Origin: Cruorifilaria tuberocauda
Lineage: Eukaryota; Nematoda; Chromadorea; Rhabditida; Onchocercidae
DNA length: 64,000 nt
Direction of reading: 5' to 3'
Assembly: GCA_013365365.1 (NCBI GenBank)
Contig: JABVXU010000008.1
Coordinates: forward strand, 434,001 to 498,000
Part shown: one piece after another, positions 27,901-59,300 of the stretch
How positions within the stretch are numbered: position 1 is the stretch's first letter
Layout: each line of letters begins with the position of its first letter
The notes under the pieces: model-generated
Databases searched by the model: none
What the model saw: only the letters and a program-made list of their open reading frames with translations
What the model was told of the DNA's origin: nothing
Made by a program: the position numbers and the translations under genes

Positions 27901-28930
27901 ATCAAATCCAGAACAAAGGATTTCATCATCCTTCATTTCCTCGCTTTTCCAGCGACACGCCTCAAGAAATGTTTTTAGGTGATCTCAGTAGGCAGAAAGC
28001 AATTAGAAAAAGGCTTAAATGTAAATCGTTTGATTGGTTCATGAAAGAGGTTGCTTTCGATCAGGAAAAATACTACCCTGCAGTAGAACCCGAAGATAGC
28101 GCTAAAGGTCAAGGACGTTTATATTTTTCTTCATTTTGGTTTGTGCAGATCGTTTGTTTGATCTAAAATTTCTTAACACTTACATAAATAAATTATACAG
28201 GTGAGCTTCGCAATGTTGCAGCGAATAAATGCGTGGATACACAATTCAAAGAGGCCGAGAAAAAGTTTGGTTTACGGAAATGTATCAGTGATGACCCAGT
28301 CAATAATGGCGAACAGGTAAATATTATTTCTTTAGCTGCAGGACTTTTTTAATTTCTTTCTCTAATTCACTTTAAAATTTGGAGATCTGCTAAATTTTTG
28401 AGAACTTTCGATTGACATTTTGGCGTGAAGTACGACTCGATACTCGTTCAATGTGTTTCGATGTTTCAGTTTCTGTGAATCAAGCGCCTATTGTTTTATT
28501 TTCGTGGTAATTTTTGGAATGAATTTCCCATAAGTTTTCAGCTTTAAAAATTCTGTTTTTTGATGAACTCGAAGGAGTAGTCGAAGTTATAGAGATCTCC
28601 TTTCAGTACCTCAATTTCTTGTTTTTTCAAGAAGAGATAGTGTAGATCGAATAGTAAGAGACGCTGAATTTTTCTATTAAATTTAAAATTTTTTCCAGCC
28701 ATGGCATGCAAGGTAACCAACATTTCAAATATCTGCCTGACAAACAGCAGATATACCATCCAATTAGTGGTTTGTGCATGGATTGCGATGTGGATCGAGG
28801 AGAAATTTTCATGAATCCCTGTGACTCGGAACGACGAAGCCAGAAGTGGACATGGACAAAAATTAATCTGAAATTGATTCAGCAGCGTAATGAAAAAAAA
28901 GGCGTAGACTTAGTGAAATACTCGGAATAA
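24903..28930 (+). CDS. GALNT10: Polypeptide N-acetylgalactosaminyltransferase, GALNT10-like
   Basis: Golgi type II membrane enzyme that starts mucin-type O-glycosylation by moving GalNAc from UDP-GalNAc to Ser/Thr. Thirteen exons join in frame to 610 aa, the size of human GALNT10: 24903-25050, 25247-25401, 25609-25764, 25846-26021, 26108-26248, 26398-26474, 26544-26740, 27064-27188, 27265-27341, 27979-28107, 28201-28316, 28403-28506, 28699-28930. A short cytosolic N-terminus and an anchor helix ([15 protein letters not shown]) are followed by a stem. The GT-A domain has [37 protein letters not shown] (metal-binding DxH, here DAH), [11 protein letters not shown] and CSRVGHIYR. The ricin-type lectin domain starts near residue 460 ([13 protein letters not shown]) and contains [13 protein letters not shown] and [18 protein letters not shown], which fit GALNT10 better than other isoforms. 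Exon 1 to 2 is the least certain junction. Intron 9 carries an SL1-like sequence on the other strand. Confidence 0.94.
27609..27629 (-). ncRNA. SL1-like spliced-leader sequence (relic or atypical SL RNA gene)
   Basis: On the minus strand, 27629 down to 27609 reads the nematode SL1 leader with a single T missing near its 5' end (21 of 22 bases). It is followed at once by GT (GAG|GTAC), which is where the donor of an SL RNA sits. Downstream, to about 27500, I see no clear Sm-site (AATTTTTGG type), and no 5S rRNA is nearby, although filarial SL genes usually lie in the 5S repeat. It could be a pseudogene, an orphan copy, or chance; chance is unlikely for 21 bases in 64 kb. It lies inside intron 9 of the GALNT10-like gene, antisense to it. 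Confidence 0.5.
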
Positions 28931-30916
28931 AAAAGTTTTAATTCTGATTTAATTCATAATTAAGTTTCTTTTAGTCTGGAGTAACATCACCAAGGGTACA
29001 AGAAGAATCGCCATTAAATACATCGATATCGACATGAAACAAGTGGAACTCTTCAACATTTAGATTGTCTAATTACTCTATAAAAGAATCAAACACAACT
29101 TGCCAGCATTGCCATACCATATCTCTAGGTTCTTTATCTTATTTCGTTTAATGATTTCATATAATAACTAGAAAACTGATTTGATTGGATTTACGGAGGT
29201 TGCATTTTTATCGTGTCGGTTTTTTATTGGATTTTACTCATTCCTGAGTACATGAGAAAATGTTTCTAGTCCTCCGTCTTTTTGAAAGTTTTTTTGAAGT
29301 TCTATTTCTTTCAAATTTTTCATTAACAAAAATGAAGAAAATTCGCATTGGTTTGTACCAATGGATCTTCAAAATTGTGTACTGCAGATGTTTCGTAATT
29401 GCATTCCGATTGTTTTGTTAGCTCAGCTGTAGAAGTATCATATATGGAGGTATTTTCGGGATGTTCTTTACAGTTCAATATGATACTTTGTCAATTACTC
29501 ACAAACTTCTAACCTTTATAATTGGATTATCGGCATGTTGGATTAAGCTACGAAGACTAAAATGCTTTTCATTACTTTGATAAATTACAGAGCTCTTTTT
29601 CTATCCATGAAATCTGGTTTTTCACCACAAATTTCAATGATTTTGGTGGTTTGGGACAGTTTCAGACAATGTAAATATTTATTGAGAAAGCAAATCGTTT
29701 AGCATGCCAATAATGAATCCTTAGATGGTCTTTCTTGTTTTACATAGTGTCGTAGTCTTTATAAATTGTCTTTGGTACTTGTTTACCTTTTTTATTCCTG
29801 TTCTGATGTCGTAATAGAACATAAATGGAGTAGGGATTTTAATAATTGCTCAAGACTGGAGGAGATATGAGTACCAGATCACAATTTACATATTGCAAGG
29901 CTTACATGGAGTTTATTACTTTTTCGTTAATTCGTAAAGAAGCTTTCACTTTGGAATATCATGAGTTTCATTAGGCTGTTCTCAACAATGCAGAAATTAG
30001 AAATGTTTCTGTTCCAGAATATTCCAGAGTATTACATTTTGGATATTGAGGCGATAATAATCGCTTTCTTGCTGTAATCTGGAATGAAAGATAATTACTA
30101 GTTTGAAATTTTTGGAAGATTTTTGTTCGAAGTTGGTTATATAGATCTGTTCCGAATAATGGATTATTTGATATGTAAGTAGTCCATTATTTTCTAGGTT
30201 TAACTTATCATTGTAGGTGAGCAAAAAATTCTATTGAATTGACTACAATTTGATAACAAAGAAACATTTCTAGGCCAAGAAGGACATTTTAAATCTCAGT
30301 TTACCGAATGAATGTTGCATGTATTGGATGCGGTAAGGTTTGCAATAACCAAAAACCGTAGAATCGGCTAACTTTTAATTATTGATGCAGATATTTATTT
30401 CGTGGATATAATCTGGGAAAAGTATTAAATTAAAAAACCCAAATAATTTGGAAATTTTCCATTGAAACTAACAACAGGCATGGCGCTAGATAAAATGATA
30501 TTGGTTTGAAAGTGGGTGGCCTAGCCCTGTTAACATTTTAGCAGCTGGAGGAAAAAGCAGCAACTCTTGGATGGTGCAATCTGTTTTGGAACAGTGTGGA
30601 AAAACGGAACGATTATTGCTTCACGCATAAATAATGCACATTCTGTATGTATATGTACATTTTAGGAATATTTTGCTTGAGATCACTGTGAAGTGGAACA
30701 GATGATAGTTAAAGGATTGAAATGGAGAAGAGAAAATTACGGTTCATTTCCCAAAGATGAGATAGATAGGTATTTTCCATGTTTTCATGTATTCCTATGA
30801 TCTGGTAATTCATGTCTATACATATATTATATATGCAACAAATAAAATACACGTACGTTTGGTTTTTCTGTTGATGCATTAAAATTATTTTTTTCTGGTA
30901 ACTTTTCTATTTTCAT
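28931..30916. other. Gene-poor region left of the inverted repeat
   Basis: About 2 kb of AT-rich sequence after the GALNT10-like stop codon. Apart from the expected 3' UTR I see nothing. The 75-codon frame at 29997-30224 (-) has no recognisable features. Confidence 0.5.
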
Positions 30917-31625
30917 CTTTTTCTGTCACCATGCTACGCAGAATGAACTGTTTGCGATCTTGAAACAATTCTGCACTTATTAATACGGTAATAAAAGGTC
31001 ATGTCATGTTTGTTGCATACATGCATATAGTACTTAAATACTGTTTTATATTTGCGTCAAATTCCATTAGTTAGCTAAAAGCATCTAAATCTGTGTGCGA
31101 AAGTCAACAATTCATAAAAGTTTGACTAATCCAACTGTTCGAAAATTTCAAAAACTCATCGCGTCGAACTACGAAGTTCTTTGATCATTCTATAAAAGTC
31201 ATATTTTTCAAATAAATTGTTCGTTAAACTCGGACGTTAAATTTAAGTTGGCAAATTGGACATCCAAAAACTTAGCTAACAGTGAAAAACCAGGTTTTCT
31301 CATTGAAACAAGGATGTATTAAATATTTAGATGTATAAATCATCAGATGCCATCATAGAGAGAAAAGAGAAAGAAAATAAACACACAATTTGGTTCATAT
31401 AACCAAGATAATTTCACTCACTGCAAAAAGAAATTGTAGTAGCTGCTTCAAAAAGTTATGCACATAATAAATAAAATTACGTCAAAAAAATTCTATAGAT
31501 CCAAGCTTCCTATCCCACGACTTAAATTTACACCGAAAAGGTTTTCAACTCAAGAATTTGTAGGCGAGGATACTTGTTTGCCAGTATAAATTTTATTATT
31601 CATGGATCCTTCAGGCAACAAATTG
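30917..31625 (+). repeat. 709-bp inverted repeat, left arm
   Basis: 709 bases that recur as the reverse complement at 33512-34220. Reading both arms side by side I find one difference (C at 31350, paired with a base that reads T in the other arm) and no gaps. The arm is AT-rich and has no open frame of 60 codons. Outside 30917 and inside 31625 the similarity stops abruptly. No target-site duplication is visible at the outer ends (outside bases ...TTTCAT on the left and AAATTC... on the right). Confidence 0.96.
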
Positions 31626-33511
31626 ATAAATGAGAAGCACGACCCCTTAAAAATGTAAAGAGCATTTGGCACAAAGTTTGGAGTTTTCAACCAGTTCGAC
31701 GCAAAAGTTTTCACTAAGTAAAATGAAATTTATGCTTTTTGATAACGTTTCAGAACAGATATTATTCTGTTCGTAATTTTCGTTTTAGAGATAAGTCTCT
31801 TTAATTTCAAAACATTTGTAAATTTGTTGGACAAATTTTTAGAAATTTCAAATAAACTAAGAAAACACTGTTATAATATCAAATATGCTGTTTTTGACAT
31901 TTTTACAGGTGTACTGTTCTCAGCTATTGCAGTTTGCAAATAAGCGGCACACAGAGAAAGTATGGAAATAATTTCAATTTAACGAAGTCCTTTTTACTTG
32001 GAAGTTTATTATAATTGATGTTTCGGTACTTAATTCTCTTATGTATTTTCCAATTTTCTCCACCAAAACAATACCCAATCCATTATTAGTATCTTTTTCT
32101 CAATAACCATTCAGCTAAAGTTTGGATTTTATTAAATTCATCATATGTATTTAAATAGAATAAACTAATCGGTATCTTAGAATTCCTCATGAATGAATAG
32201 TGTTGATTATTTTGATTGAAACTTTACCAGCGGAATGTAAAAAGCGAACACAACATTTCCTTTCATTTTTCTCAAATCTCACAAAATGAATTATTTGGAG
32301 CTAATTACTGCAAATAAAATAACATGAGTTGAATGTCTATATCACATGATCATTACAATTAAAATTTATCTGATGCAGATGGTAAAAGAATAAATAAAAA
32401 CGTGTTATATAGATGGTACAAATGCTGAGAAAATACCTCAACGTCTCAAATCTTAGATAAGAATCGAAAGCAGGAATATTTAAAACATGTTACACAGTTA
32501 GGATAAGAATAATCAAAGGAGTAATAAAAATGATCAAGAGGTGAATAAAACTACTAGTTTAGTTTTTTTGCCGACTTTTTTTCTTTAAATAATTGAAATT
32601 ATAAGTTCGTTTTGCAATTGAAAAATAACTATTAATTTGAGCTTTCGCAACACTTATTTCGGTTATATAATCTATACCACTGTTATCAGTTACTTCGTGA
32701 TATAAATCCCATTTTTAAATTGATATACTTTGTTAGTATCAAAAAAATCTGTTGATATTCGATATTGATTTTCTAGTGAAATATTTCGATTTCCTGCGAT
32801 ACAAAACGAACGATCACTTTCTTATACGGCAGTATGGTATATTTATAATTAATTTAATGTAATCAAATAGTAGAAACGAATGATGCTTATGAAGGTATAA
32901 CTACCATTAATTTTGAATAGCGGAGCATTATCACTTATTGTGATCTTGAATTCAGCAATTTTCAATTAAGAATCTCAAGAATTTCGTGTTTTTCGAGCGA
33001 AATATAATCATAACCAAGTCGTACCAATATCATGAAGTAGTTGCAAGGATTTAAGATAATCAGCATTATATCAATCAGTAACTTGGACCATTATTTAGAC
33101 AAATAATTTTTAAATTCATACGATGGTTTCAAACGAACTTTTCAAATGCAGGATGAATATACCTAATGGAATTATCTCATTTATTATGATAATCAAATAA
33201 TACAAAATCAAATAATACGAAGTTTTAGGAAATTCTAAGAACTTCACTGAGATGTATAGAATAACAACACTTTACCGCTATTTGAAACGCGGTAATCGAG
33301 TGCCATAGGCATCAGTCAGTGATTTAATTACTTAATCATTTTGTTCCACTGCAAGTACCAAAAGTTGCGATAAATTTACAAGTTCGTTGGTAAATACAAT
33401 GAACCTTCGAATTTACGAGTAACAAATAGAGTATAAAATATTTTCAAAAATTTTTACAGAGTTGAAGCTTTTCTGTTTTTGAATGTAATAATATTTTTGA
33501 ATGTAGAATAA
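31626..33511. other. 1.9-kb spacer between the inverted-repeat arms
   Basis: AT-rich (A+T visibly well above the flanks), with no open frame of 60 codons on either strand and no recognisable transposase, integrase or reverse transcriptase fragment. It carries one copy of a 48-bp dispersed repeat (31831-31878). Confidence 0.7.
31831..31878 (+). repeat. 48-bp dispersed repeat, copy 1
   Basis: 46 of 48 bases match 36209-36256 in the same orientation (differences in the TTTTT/TTTCT and AAACT/AAACC positions). One copy lies in the inverted-repeat spacer, the other about 4.4 kb to the right, just downstream of the nuclear receptor gene. Confidence 0.85.
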
Positions 33512-34220
33512 CAATTTGTTGCCTGAAGGATCCATGAATAATAAAATTTATACTGGCAAACAAGTATCCTCGCCTACAAATTCTTGAGTTGAAAACCTTT
33601 TCGGTGTAAATTTAAGTCGTGGGATAGGAAGCTTGGATCTATAGAATTTTTTTGACGTAATTTTATTTATTATGTGCATAACTTTTTGAAGCAGCTACTA
33701 CAATTTCTTTTTGCAGTGAGTGAAATTATCTTGGTTATATGAACCAAATTGTGTGTTTATTTTCTTTCTCTTTTCTCTCTATGATGACATCTGATGATTT
33801 ATACATCTAAATATTTAATACATCCTTGTTTCAATGAGAAAACCTGGTTTTTCACTGTTAGCTAAGTTTTTGGATGTCCAATTTGCCAACTTAAATTTAA
33901 CGTCCGAGTTTAACGAACAATTTATTTGAAAAATATGACTTTTATAGAATGATCAAAGAACTTCGTAGTTCGACGCGATGAGTTTTTGAAATTTTCGAAC
34001 AGTTGGATTAGTCAAACTTTTATGAATTGTTGACTTTCGCACACAGATTTAGATGCTTTTAGCTAACTAATGGAATTTGACGCAAATATAAAACAGTATT
34101 TAAGTACTATATGCATGTATGCAACAAACATGACATGACCTTTTATTACCGTATTAATAAGTGCAGAATTGTTTCAAGATCGCAAACAGTTCATTCTGCG
34201 TAGCATGGTGACAGAAAAAG
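33512..34220 (-). repeat. 709-bp inverted repeat, right arm
   Basis: Reverse complement of 30917-31625 over its whole length with a single mismatch seen. Together the arms and spacer span 3,304 bp (30917-34220). Confidence 0.96.
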
Positions 34221-36729
34221 AAATTCGTCAAGAGAAATGGCAAATCAAACGGCAGTTCAAATTTGGCGAAGGTTAAAATGTTCTATGGTCGATCAAACAC
34301 GTGGAGGAAATAAATGATTCGCGTTATCAATAAGGTGTGATCCTTGTCTATCCTAGGTGTATGAGAGTGCTGTATCAATCACATATCATTGCCAGTACCG
34401 TAATTAGTTAGTAGTTGTCATATTGATTAATTACAATTTTCAGAACAACTGGAAAAAGTCAATAATATATTAGTGTTTGTTCTTCATGTAGATATATGTG
34501 TGAATACAGTGTTTAGAAATCAGGTTCTTTTTTCAACATATAATAATTCATTTTTAGATCTAACTTTTGATTATATCTAATCATTCTATTCATTTGAAAT
34601 ATAAATTTGCGTAAGGTTTTGAAGATGCATAACCAATGATTTCTTTTATAATTATATACAAAGAGTCGGCAAACGTACATTAAAGAATTAAGTTCTGCAC
34701 TAACGTCAATAAACTGTTTCAGTTCTATAAATAGATAAATATTTGAATGTATTGTAAATAAGTTGCTTTCGGTAAGTCCCACTTTTTCACTTTTTGATAC
34801 TAATAGTACTTCAAGAAAGGATCAGGATTAGCATTTTCTTGCATGTTTGAATAGCACCCTTCGTCTTATACTCATCCGATTACCTAGTTATTGATACATA
34901 TTTTCTAGACTTGTCGGCATCGCTCCAAAAAGTTCGCTCTTCGTCGTATCACTCCATATTGTAAATAAATCTCGTGGAATACTGTAAAGAGTTAATCGAC
35001 TTTCTGCTTATAAAGGATTGTTCCTGAAATTCTAAATAATGTGTCACTATTCCTTACAAATCCATAAATCACTTACTTTCTATCTGTCTGTTGGTGAGAA
35101 AGAAATCCAATGTCTTCGTCCTCATTTCTTTTCCTCTCTAAAATCCTTTTAAAGTTATTTGTAAGGGAAAATATAAATCGCATTGCGAGGTGTATATTCC
35201 CTTGGCAAATAGACCAAAATGTTTGCTGTAGTTTTCATAATTGGAGTATGACTGATTTTGTTTAGCAGAACAGAGCAGAAGAAAGATTAATTATGCGAAG
35301 AAGGCTTGTTAACAATGTTACCCGCTGTGAATCCATTCCACTGTAAATATTTTCGCGGAAAGAAGTTTGATATTAAATTGTGAACTATACTGATCTTCAG
35401 ACCATTCCTTCGAAATCATATGCAATGATCAGCTATGGCTCAATTAACTTTATTATGTGCCAATATCACTTATTAGAATCTCATATCTTTTCCATATTTT
35501 TTGTCTTATATAAAGAATATCAGAATAGTTCCGGAAGATCTGAAAACGAAACAAGACGATATTTAATGTGGAACTTTCAACTCTAATTTCATAATAATAA
35601 ACAAATTAGGATAGTTATCAACTAGCATCATTTAACCGTGCATTAATATCATTAGAAAATTCATATCTCCAATGATCTTTCTCACATTATCAGAAAACAA
35701 TTCTTCCTGCACTAATTCTTCTGTTTTCATAATAAAATTAGCCACTTGTTTATGGGACTTAAAATTGATAAATAATGAAAAGTCCGAATGATACAGTAAA
35801 CTATGCTTCTTTCAGCATTGAAATATTATTGTACAGGAAATTGGTCACTAAATTCAGCACAACTACGAATCTCTACTAAGAGCAATGCTCGTGGTACTAG
35901 GTCATCCTTATGTGTTAAACACGCGATTTCATAGCCTAATACCATCGTATTCATCTAACGAACAGCCTGCCTTCATATATAATTTTGATGAGTGCTTTTG
36001 TTGTGTTGAAATACAAAGGATATTTGTTGTACCTCTTTGTATGAATTTTTAAAGATTATGCATTTTAGGTGAAAAAAATAAATAAATAAATACATATATA
36101 ATGTCAAATCACCGAACTAATATCAAACTAAGCATATATCTCCTGCAAAACACCGGAAGTGAGCACCTTCATGTCCGTTTAAATTTGACCAATGCCAGGA
36201 ACAGGTGAACAAATTTCTAGAAATTTCAAATAAACCAAGAAAACACTGTTATAATAATATATGAGGTTAAGATCAGCCATCACTAGCAGATCAGTGAAAT
36301 GACCAAACGAAGAAATACTAATGTGAAATTGGTTTCGGCTATATGCGCTACGTTCGTTCCCACGCAGTTGTGCCACCATAAAAAATAGAGAAATGAGTGA
36401 TGGAACTTCTAACACGCTTGGTCATAGTAAATATGATATTGAAATAATAAACAACATATTTATAATTTGATCATACTAGTAAACAGTAGCTTACTTCATT
36501 GTACCGGAAAAATTCATATTAAAATTTTTCGAATTAAAGGAGAAAGCTAATAATTGTATTTTTTCATATCACATAATGAAGCTTTTAACCCGTCATTGCC
36601 TTTTTTTTAAAAAACAATGCTATGATTGTAATCGATACACCTAGTTGATAATCCGGAAAATGTAGCAGAAAAGGAAAGAAGTATTCAAGCTGACAGCAAA
36701 ATCTTACTGCCTGATTACAAAGATAGAAG
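34221..36729. other. Gene-poor region between inverted repeat and nuclear receptor gene
   Basis: About 2.5 kb, AT-rich. Copy 2 of the 48-bp repeat is at 36209-36256. Open frames at 34513-34782 (-), 35380-35586 (+) and 36179-36415 (-) show no domains or good splice context. It includes the 3' side of the nuclear receptor gene. Confidence 0.5.
36209..36256 (+). repeat. 48-bp dispersed repeat, copy 2
   Basis: Partner of 31831-31878 (46 of 48 identical), same orientation. Confidence 0.85.
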
Positions 36730-39700
36730 TCATTGTTTTGATAGAATCCTTTGCGATCGTATCTCCTTAGGCAATAAAATATCAGCGACTAGCGCAGACA
36801 TCGATGCATTACCAATCGATTGCTTGAAATACAGCTCGGAGAGAATCGTCTCGAATTGAGGCATTGTTTCCAAGAGTACCATGCAGGAAATATATCGTAA
36901 CGGCTGGCACGGATAAGTAATTTGTTGATGTTGCGCGAAATTAAATGCTGTCAATTGTTCCATTTGTGGATTGCGTCCTGAAATTTATAGATATTATAGA
37001 TAATGAATATAGTAGCTAATCCCATAACGATAGTGGATAAGATATGGAATCCAACTAAAATATTGTAGCTGAAATTTCCTGTACGGTCATACTCGAGGGG
37101 ATCACTGCTTTCCTTCATTTGCTTCTTCCTTATTTATATAAAAATTATTGATGAAATGAATACCTTTGATAAGACTCAGAAGACGTAATTGATTATACTC
37201 CGTGGAATCTAGCCTTAACTGTTCCAGTTGACTTACTGCTGATAAAAGTTTCATTCTCATTTGGATATTGATTGTTCGCTCATTTACCAGAGCACTGCTT
37301 TGAAGGAAACGGTTTTCTACGGCGGAAAGCAGGAAAAGTACACCCCAAGAAGATGTAAATGCTGCTACCTGAAATCAGTACATTTCGTTATGATAACTAA
37401 GTTAAATCTAAATTGATATAAATGATGAGGTTCACTAGGTGACTATTAAAGAAATTAATTTTAGTCTCAAAGAGCTATTTTTTGGGAGTGGTAAGATTTA
37501 GTATTCATATAACTGTCAAACAGTTTTGAAGTTCTGAACGCTTTATGATAAAAGTGACACACCGACTTAGACTTAGTTTCTCTAATAATATCGAAAACTG
37601 ATGTATTCAGGCCACAGATGTTATACGTTTCACTTATTTTTGCCACGGTTATAATGCTAAGAAAATCGACGATTGGACCGATGTAAGATTTGGAAAAATA
37701 AATGAACTTGACACTTAACACTGACCTCTCCACAAAGCCTATGAAATGCTTTTTCCAAGAATTTTTGAAAAACTATCAGTATCAAAGGTTCAGTAGTAAA
37801 ATGTGAGGAAATGCGTGAACGGATATGATGAAAAAGAATAAAGCAACTTTCATACCATACTGATTATTACACAAATCAAAAAAGAAAAAAAGCAAAAAAG
37901 AAAAAAAGTAGGTACTTGTTCTTGAGGAGATAAGCAAGTGAAAGCAAGTAATGATTTAGACCAATGTAATATTTGAAAAAATAAACGGGCTGCTGCATCT
38001 TTTGTCGTTGATGATATTTCATTCATTGCACATGATACAGAGGAATCTGATTCTGATCCAAATTCGGGCTATAGAAAAAATTTATCAAGATTTTTTTGCA
38101 ATTTTGGCAGCTTCATTTTAACTTGTCAATGTATTTATATGTGATAACAGTTTCATTTAAATATGTAAATATTAAATACATATTTTATTTAAATATGTAT
38201 TTAATTAGAAAAATTGATGTTTGAGGGAATATGGAAGCACTTAGTAAAGTGAACAAGTGAGATATTACAAGTGTTAAAACTTACGGATCGTTCTCCAGCA
38301 GAAGGTGGTGACGAATAAAAAGCGATATGCCTTCGCATGGTTGAATTTCTTGGGCCTCTTTCATGTTGTACTGCTTCTTTATTCATGCCTATCTTCAAAC
38401 ATTTCGTTAGACGACATGCTCGACATTGGTTACGATGTGTTTTATCCACCAAACATTTACCTTCTTCGCCACCACCTCGATTTTTGCACACATATTGACG
38501 ATGCCGTCGAATGGAGCGCTGCAATTCAGTAATTTAGAATTTCTTGATGATTATTCAAATACTTGGGAAATTAATGGAAAGAGTAGCAAGGAATTCAAGA
38601 ACGTTAACAAGGAAATAAATATAATATGCGAAGAAGTGTAGTAAGAACCTTGAAAAATCCAGCACAGCCATCACAGCTAAATATTCCATAATGCTTTCCT
38701 GATGAATGATCTTGACATACCCGACAAGGCACATCTAGTAGTATGCGACCTGAAAGACGGTTTCAATTGAAATAATCGTAGATGTTGGTTAATCCGTAAA
38801 GAAATTTCAACCACTTTCTAAAGCAACCTCAAATAATTCCATTTGTAATTAGCGCGGATAGGCATGATATGAATCAATATATTTATGCCGTTATTTTATA
38901 TTTATTTACTATCGTCAGAATAAAAATTTTGTATTCAAATTTGCTCTCCGGAATGGTTTGATAGAATTAAGTTTAAAAAATTCTCTTCTAAATTACGTAT
39001 GGAAAAATCATTCCTTTGACAATAATACCTAAAAATGTAATTTTCGACATTTCGTAATCATGGATGTATTCATGTTTTGCGCAGTCATTTAAAAGTTTTA
39101 GCAAATTTTTAAATGGTTTATGAGTTCATGTTTGAGTGTAAGTAATACGGTAGAATATAATTAAAGAATCATTTTCTGAATAAAATGTTAGAAGATAAGT
39201 AATGATGTGAAAAAGCACCCGAGGCAATGCTTTGGTCTGCTGCTGAGATAAAATGCATGTCTCTTTCAGTGCTAGTCAAAAGATATGTACAAACAAAATA
39301 TTTATCCCACCGATCATTTCACAATTATTATTTATTCAACAATCTCCACTATGCTCTTTACTTGTATTCTATGCTTTGCTTTCTACTTTGAAATTATAGT
39401 TTGACATGGTCAGTTCTTACGATATCGTTGACAATCATCTCATTAATCAATATCAATCTTCTCCACTAATTTCATGAATTATAGCAAAATAATAAATGTA
39501 TAAATATAGATTTTCTTACTGGTTTCCGTTTTTCTGATCAAAAAGAATCAATCATACAATAAAAACACTGGTCATTTTAGAAATGATATTCGAATTTTGA
39601 CATACTCAAAGTTGTGCAAAATCGATTTTTCTAGATAAAATTTAAGAAATGAAAGACCTTCCCAATTCAAAAATTCATTACAAACTCAAATGCGGTGGAC

Positions 39701-58986: not shown

Positions 58987-59131
58987 TGAAGAGTATGTAA
59001 TTTCGAAGCTTTTAAAATTATATTTTTTGATTCACTACACCTCTAACTAAATTTTATTGATATACGCCATTCTAATAAATTTATTACACTTTTCATCGTG
59101 CGCAAGAAATGTAACACGGAAAGTTATTCGG

Positions 59132-59191
59132 ATGTATGTGATTAAGAACTACTATGTGATCATTCACATAGTAGTTCTTAATCATATATAT
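59132..59191. repeat. Near-perfect 60-nt hairpin
   Basis: A 21-bp perfect inverted repeat (59139-59159 with 59164-59184) has a 4-nt loop (59160-59163). It extends outward to a 28-bp stem (59132-59191) with two G-T pairs. It lies between the PIGQ coding end and the CEP41-like gene. It may be a terminator-like RNA fold, a tiny fold-back element, or an RNA hairpin. Confidence 0.85.
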
Positions 59192-59300
59192 GAAAATAAT
59201 TGATCTGGGAATTTTTTAATTATAAAGACCTGACTTTCGAAAAATTATATTTTCTTAGAAAACTTCTGGAAATGTTTCAATTTTTCCTGTTGCGAGCATA

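What the first reader, a model, noticed from the sequence alone, without database searches (positions are those of the whole stretch)
30917..34220. 709-bp inverted repeat with about 99.9% identity around a 1.9-kb AT-rich spacer
Two arms of exactly equal length (30917-31625 and 33512-34220) are reverse complements with one mismatch seen and no gaps. Such identity in non-coding AT-rich DNA means a very recent inverted duplication, ongoing gene conversion, a fold-back transposable element, or an assembly artefact. There is no open frame in arms or spacer and no visible target-site duplication, so a standard DNA transposon is not supported. If transcribed it would give a long dsRNA, a natural small-RNA source; the spacer could also invert by recombination between the arms.
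Basis: partly seen in the sequence, partly recalled or inferred. Interest (0 to 1): 0.78.

Follow-up and report, generated by a model that had tools for sequence, protein, structure and literature searches.

The report
Recent local inverted DNA duplication
In what looks like a filarial worm genome, a unique 0.7-kb stretch of apparently non-coding DNA between two genes occurs twice as near-perfect mirror copies, most likely a recent break-and-repair accident of a known kind rather than a transposon or a gene.

Summary
In detail: 30916-31625 and 33512-34221 are gap-free reverse complements over 710 bases with one mismatch, around a unique AT-rich spacer of about 1.88 kb. Twenty simulated 64-kb sequences gave exact inverted matches of at most 16-20 bases. 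The arm matches only its two copies in the 71.7-Mb assembly; the spacer only itself and one 51-base piece. The outer ends share no word of 4 or more bases, and no Rfam family or above-cutoff Pfam domain was found in arms or spacer. It lies between two converging genes, GalNAc-transferase-like and nuclear-receptor-like, in what looks like a filarial nematode. Best reading: a recent local inverted duplication of unique intergenic DNA by break repair (staggered-break micro-inversion or template switch). Transcription, inversion and function are untested; an assembly artefact, or an older repeat kept alike by gene conversion, cannot be excluded without reads or an outgroup. Near-perfect inverted repeats in nematode intergenic DNA are already described (PMC1803023). 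Ordinary to mildly interesting.

The parts
30916..31628 (+). left arm of the inverted repeat (core identity to 31625)
33509..34221 (-). right arm, reverse complement of the left (core from 33512)
31629..33508 (.). AT-rich spacer, 1880 bases, 28.0% GC; only one other match (51 bases) in the assembly
31350..31350 (.). the one mismatch inside the core arms (C here; opposite base 33787 reads T)
28658..28930 (+). last frame of the left neighbour, ricin-B-lectin C-terminus (GalNAc-transferase-like)
   Evidence: PF00652, E 2.8e-9; frame 26537-26764 matches PF02709 Glyco_transf_7C, E 9.6e-8; that both frames belong to one gene is inferred
36730..36984 (-). probable last coding frame of the right neighbour, a nuclear-receptor-like gene (DNA-binding exon at 38201-38533)
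   Evidence: zf-C4 exon. This last frame and the two frames 36951-37133 and 37102-37374 gave no Pfam hit; the assignment rests on recalled NR2E-type C-terminal motifs

Best explanation
A recent local inverted duplication of unique intergenic DNA. One 0.71-kb stretch was copied in reverse orientation about 1.9 kb away during repair of a DNA break, either by a micro-inversion with staggered breaks (fill-in leaves an inverted copy of one breakpoint stretch at each end of the inverted segment) or by template switching to the opposite strand. The two routes cannot be told apart here: the first predicts that the spacer is inverted relative to related worms, the second that it is not. Shown: structure, identity, copy number in the assembly, lack of a target-site duplication. 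Inferred: the event, its recency, the intergenic position. Transcription into a hairpin, if any, would most likely be a side effect.
For: Only the two arms match in the assembly; spacer and flanks give themselves plus short pieces (51 bases at 94%; about 100 bases at 74-76%). No target-site duplication. No Rfam match in 30800-34350 at E up to 1. No Pfam match above cutoff in the 17 arm/spacer frames of 40 aa or more listed (1, 8, 8). One difference in 709 sites, 0.14% (Poisson 95% range 0.004-0.79%). Identity stops sharply at both ends. In Drosophila, inverted duplications at inversion breakpoints are ascribed to staggered breaks, including a case where the copy comes from one breakpoint only (PMC5080602, passages seen). 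A second, older local copy (51 bases, 94%, direct, 31828-31878 and 36206-36256) suggests that the region has been copied locally before.
Against: No related genome was available, so ancestral state, spacer orientation and age are not shown. High arm identity could also come from gene conversion in an older repeat. The assembly itself is unverified. The genome search skips very common words, so absence of further copies is not absolute.
Confidence: 0.68

Rival explanations
1. An older inverted repeat whose arms are kept alike by arm-to-arm gene conversion, as proposed for some C. elegans intergenic inverted repeats.
For: In Caenorhabditis such repeats have, in one example, arm identity above 95% within each species and below 80% between species; the paper also says that many C. 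[quoted passage not shown]
Against: The cases worked out there lie between paralogous gene pairs; here the neighbours look unrelated. One recent event explains the sharp ends and the single mismatch without conversion, but this does not exclude conversion.
Confidence: 0.14
2. Assembly artefact: one arm was placed twice.
For: Only one mismatch in 710 bases; assembly method and reads are unknown.
Against: Each arm has its own distinct flanks on both sides, in one contig of 522060 bases with no N in the window. A missed-adapter fold-back read would give a palindrome without this spacer and without unlike outer flanks (recalled). In 20 stretches of 10 kb only one other inverted repeat of 60 or more bases at 75% or more was found (168 bases, 82%; E cut-off 1e-10), so such joins are not rife, though the sample is small.
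Confidence: 0.13
3. A non-autonomous fold-back or long-terminal-inverted-repeat DNA transposon of 3.3 kb.
For: Long terminal inverted repeats around a centre without a sizeable open frame.
Against: No target-site duplication, no second copy seen in the 71.7-Mb assembly, no transposase domain in the frames tested.
Confidence: 0.05

Closest known systems
Long near-perfect intergenic inverted repeats of Caenorhabditis (Zhao et al. 2007, PMC1803023; parts 1-3 of 4 read)
   Same: Nematode, intergenic, arms nearly identical, with a spacer.
   Different: The worked-out cases lie between paralogous gene pairs and are shared among species; this one lies between genes that look unrelated and its conservation is unknown. 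The intergenic spacers of the two examples that the paper pictures first are 126 and 414 bases, against 1880 here.
Inverted breakpoint duplications of staggered-break inversions in Drosophila subobscura (PMC5080602; passages seen)
   Same: A stretch duplicated in inverted orientation at the two ends of a segment; it may derive from one breakpoint only.
   Different: There the uninverted arrangement was compared; here there is no outgroup, and the putative inverted segment is only about 1.9 kb.
Fold-back transposable elements (recalled, no call)
   Same: Long terminal inverted repeats around a spacer.
   Different: As recalled, those are dispersed and flanked by target-site duplications; both features were tested here and not met.

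Membership tests
Fold-back / TIR DNA transposon | several dispersed copies | tested here: not met
   2 matches, the two arms; spacer itself plus one 51-base piece
Fold-back / TIR DNA transposon | target-site duplication at the outer ends | tested here: not met
   no shared word of 4-9 bases in the 28-base stretches around the ends
Fold-back / TIR DNA transposon | transposase or its relic (autonomous forms only) | tested here: not met
   all 17 arm/spacer frames of 40 aa or more scanned; three gave weak hits below the curated cut-off, none to a transposase; shorter frames not scanned
Local inverted duplication | two near-identical inverted copies, no others seen | tested here: met
Local inverted duplication | single-copy state in a relative | not testable with these tools
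   the output says that the genome has no relatives here
Conversion-maintained nematode inverted repeat (PMC1803023 kind) | repeat shared between species while sequence diverges | not testable with these tools
   no relatives held
Conversion-maintained nematode inverted repeat (PMC1803023 kind) | flanked by paralogous genes | tested here: not met
   glycosyltransferase-like against nuclear-receptor-like neighbours
Staggered-break inversion duplication | spacer inverted relative to the ancestral order | not testable with these tools
   no outgroup; possible joins printed cannot be judged alone

The most novel reading that the evidence does not exclude
A newborn hairpin small-RNA locus: read-through from one of the two converging genes crosses the repeat, folds into a 0.7-kb dsRNA and feeds the worm's RNAi pathway in cis on the 3' ends of the neighbouring genes, while recombination between the arms flips the spacer between individuals.
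Probability: 0.06. Interest if true: 0.5.

Novelty: new member of a known kind. Interest (0 to 1): 0.22.

Why it matters
If real and polymorphic, it would be a clean, young example of how long inverted repeats are born from unique DNA in a parasitic nematode, before gene conversion or decay blurs the junctions. By itself it tells little about function.

Tried and rejected
Transposable element: rejected for lack of copies and of a target-site duplication. Hidden gene or RNA: no Rfam match in the window at gathering score or in 30800-34350 at E up to 1; no tRNA in the window (bacterial code setting). Of the 17 arm/spacer frames of 40 aa or more (3 arm, 14 spacer) all were scanned against Pfam (1; 8; 8). 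Three gave weak hits below cut-off, taken as chance in AT-rich DNA: 31746-31943 to 7tm_7 (E 0.0087, 15.8 bits, cut-off 26.6), one spacer frame to DUF5475 (E 0.023) and DASH_Ask1 (E 0.087), one to DUF192 (E 0.021). Frames shorter than 40 aa, and a search for spliced genes, were not done. Junction microhomology: the alternative joins were printed but cannot be judged without the ancestral state. Composition along the interval gave no hint of orientation.

Literature: searches returned no paper; some searches gave listings. Of the papers listed, three were opened: PMC1803023 (parts 1-3 of 4), PMC3213143 (passages; not used in the argument) and PMC5080602 (passages). No claim is made that this locus is absent from print.

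Full report
Observation. The inverted repeat is real in the sequence given: 30916-31625 pairs with 33512-34221 without a gap over 710 bases, with one mismatch (31350 C against 33787), and the repeat finder extends it to 713 bases. It is far beyond chance: the longest exact inverted match in each of 20 simulated 64-kb sequences of the same dinucleotide composition was 16-20 bases. In a self-comparison of the window (E up to 1e-10, 60 or more bases, 75% or more) the only other row was a 76-base palindrome at 59124-59199.

Surroundings. To the left, a plus-strand gene ends at 28930 with a ricin-B-lectin domain; an upstream frame matches Glyco_transf_7C, so it is GalNAc-transferase-like. To the right, a minus-strand gene has a zf-C4 exon at 38201-38533 (best solved chains COUP-TF1, HNF4-alpha, NR2C2). 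Its last coding frame is probably 36730-36984 by motifs that I recall from NR2E receptors; Pfam gave no hit there or in the two frames next to it. The two genes converge, so the repeat sits about 2.0 and 2.5 kb beyond their probable stop codons. No gene annotation was available, so 'intergenic' is inferred from open frames. Joined pieces of a phosphate carrier gene at 53-55 kb (306 residues) are 94% identical to proteins named for Loa loa (100% of the query covered) and Cercopithifilaria johnstoni (99%), and 86% to Setaria digitata, which points to a filarial nematode (best 120 of 4614 hits listed; the species is not identified). The assembly has 71680031 bases in 1108 contigs; the window lies in a contig of 522060 bases.

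Copy number. Searched against the whole assembly, the arm gives 2 matches, the two arms. The spacer gives itself and one 51-base match at 94%, at window 36206-36256. The left flank gives itself and two pieces of about 100 bases at 74-76% on other contigs. The right flank gives itself and the spacer end of the same 51-base pair. The tool warns that very common words are skipped, so absence is not absolute.

Base rate. In 20 stretches of 10 kb from the same assembly (17, 3) one inverted repeat of at least 60 bases and 75% was found, 168 bases at 82% in L026. With 200 kb of 71.7 Mb sampled, 12 of the 20 stretches from the window's own contig, this only says that near-perfect long inverted repeats are not very common here. 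PMC1803023 likewise calls them very rare in C. elegans, citing other work.

What it is. No target-site duplication, no second copy and no transposase domain speak against a transposon. Identity that stops sharply at both ends and one difference in 709 sites fit a single recent event. Two repair routes give this anatomy: a micro-inversion with staggered breaks, which leaves an inverted copy of a breakpoint stretch at each end (described for Drosophila inversions, PMC5080602, passages), and template switching to the opposite strand (recalled, no call). The junctions were printed, but an outgroup is needed to choose. An older repeat kept alike by gene conversion, as proposed for C. elegans (PMC1803023), is possible; there the repeats worked out separate paralogous genes, here genes that look unrelated.

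Function. None shown. If transcribed through, the arms would form a long dsRNA, but the arm matches nothing else in the assembly, so small RNAs from it would be expected to act only in cis. Spacer flipping by recombination between the arms is possible in principle and untested.

Verdict. A real, recent-looking but ordinary structure: a new instance of a known kind. The main uncertainties are assembly quality and the missing outgroup.

Noticed in passing
31828-31878 and 36206-36256: A 51-base direct repeat, 94% identical, found only at these two places in the assembly; one copy is in the spacer, the other about 0.5 kb beyond the probable stop codon of the nuclear-receptor-like gene. It suggests an older local copying event.
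   Followed up: partly
29020-29125: A piece of about 105 bases with relatives at 74-76% identity on contigs C275 and C168 (L006, L007), probably an old dispersed repeat.
   Followed up: no
59124-59199: A 76-base imperfect palindrome, 82%.
   Followed up: no
L026:6067-6546: Another inverted repeat, arms of about 168 and 158 bases at 82% with a 154-base spacer, the only one in the 200-kb sample.
   Followed up: no
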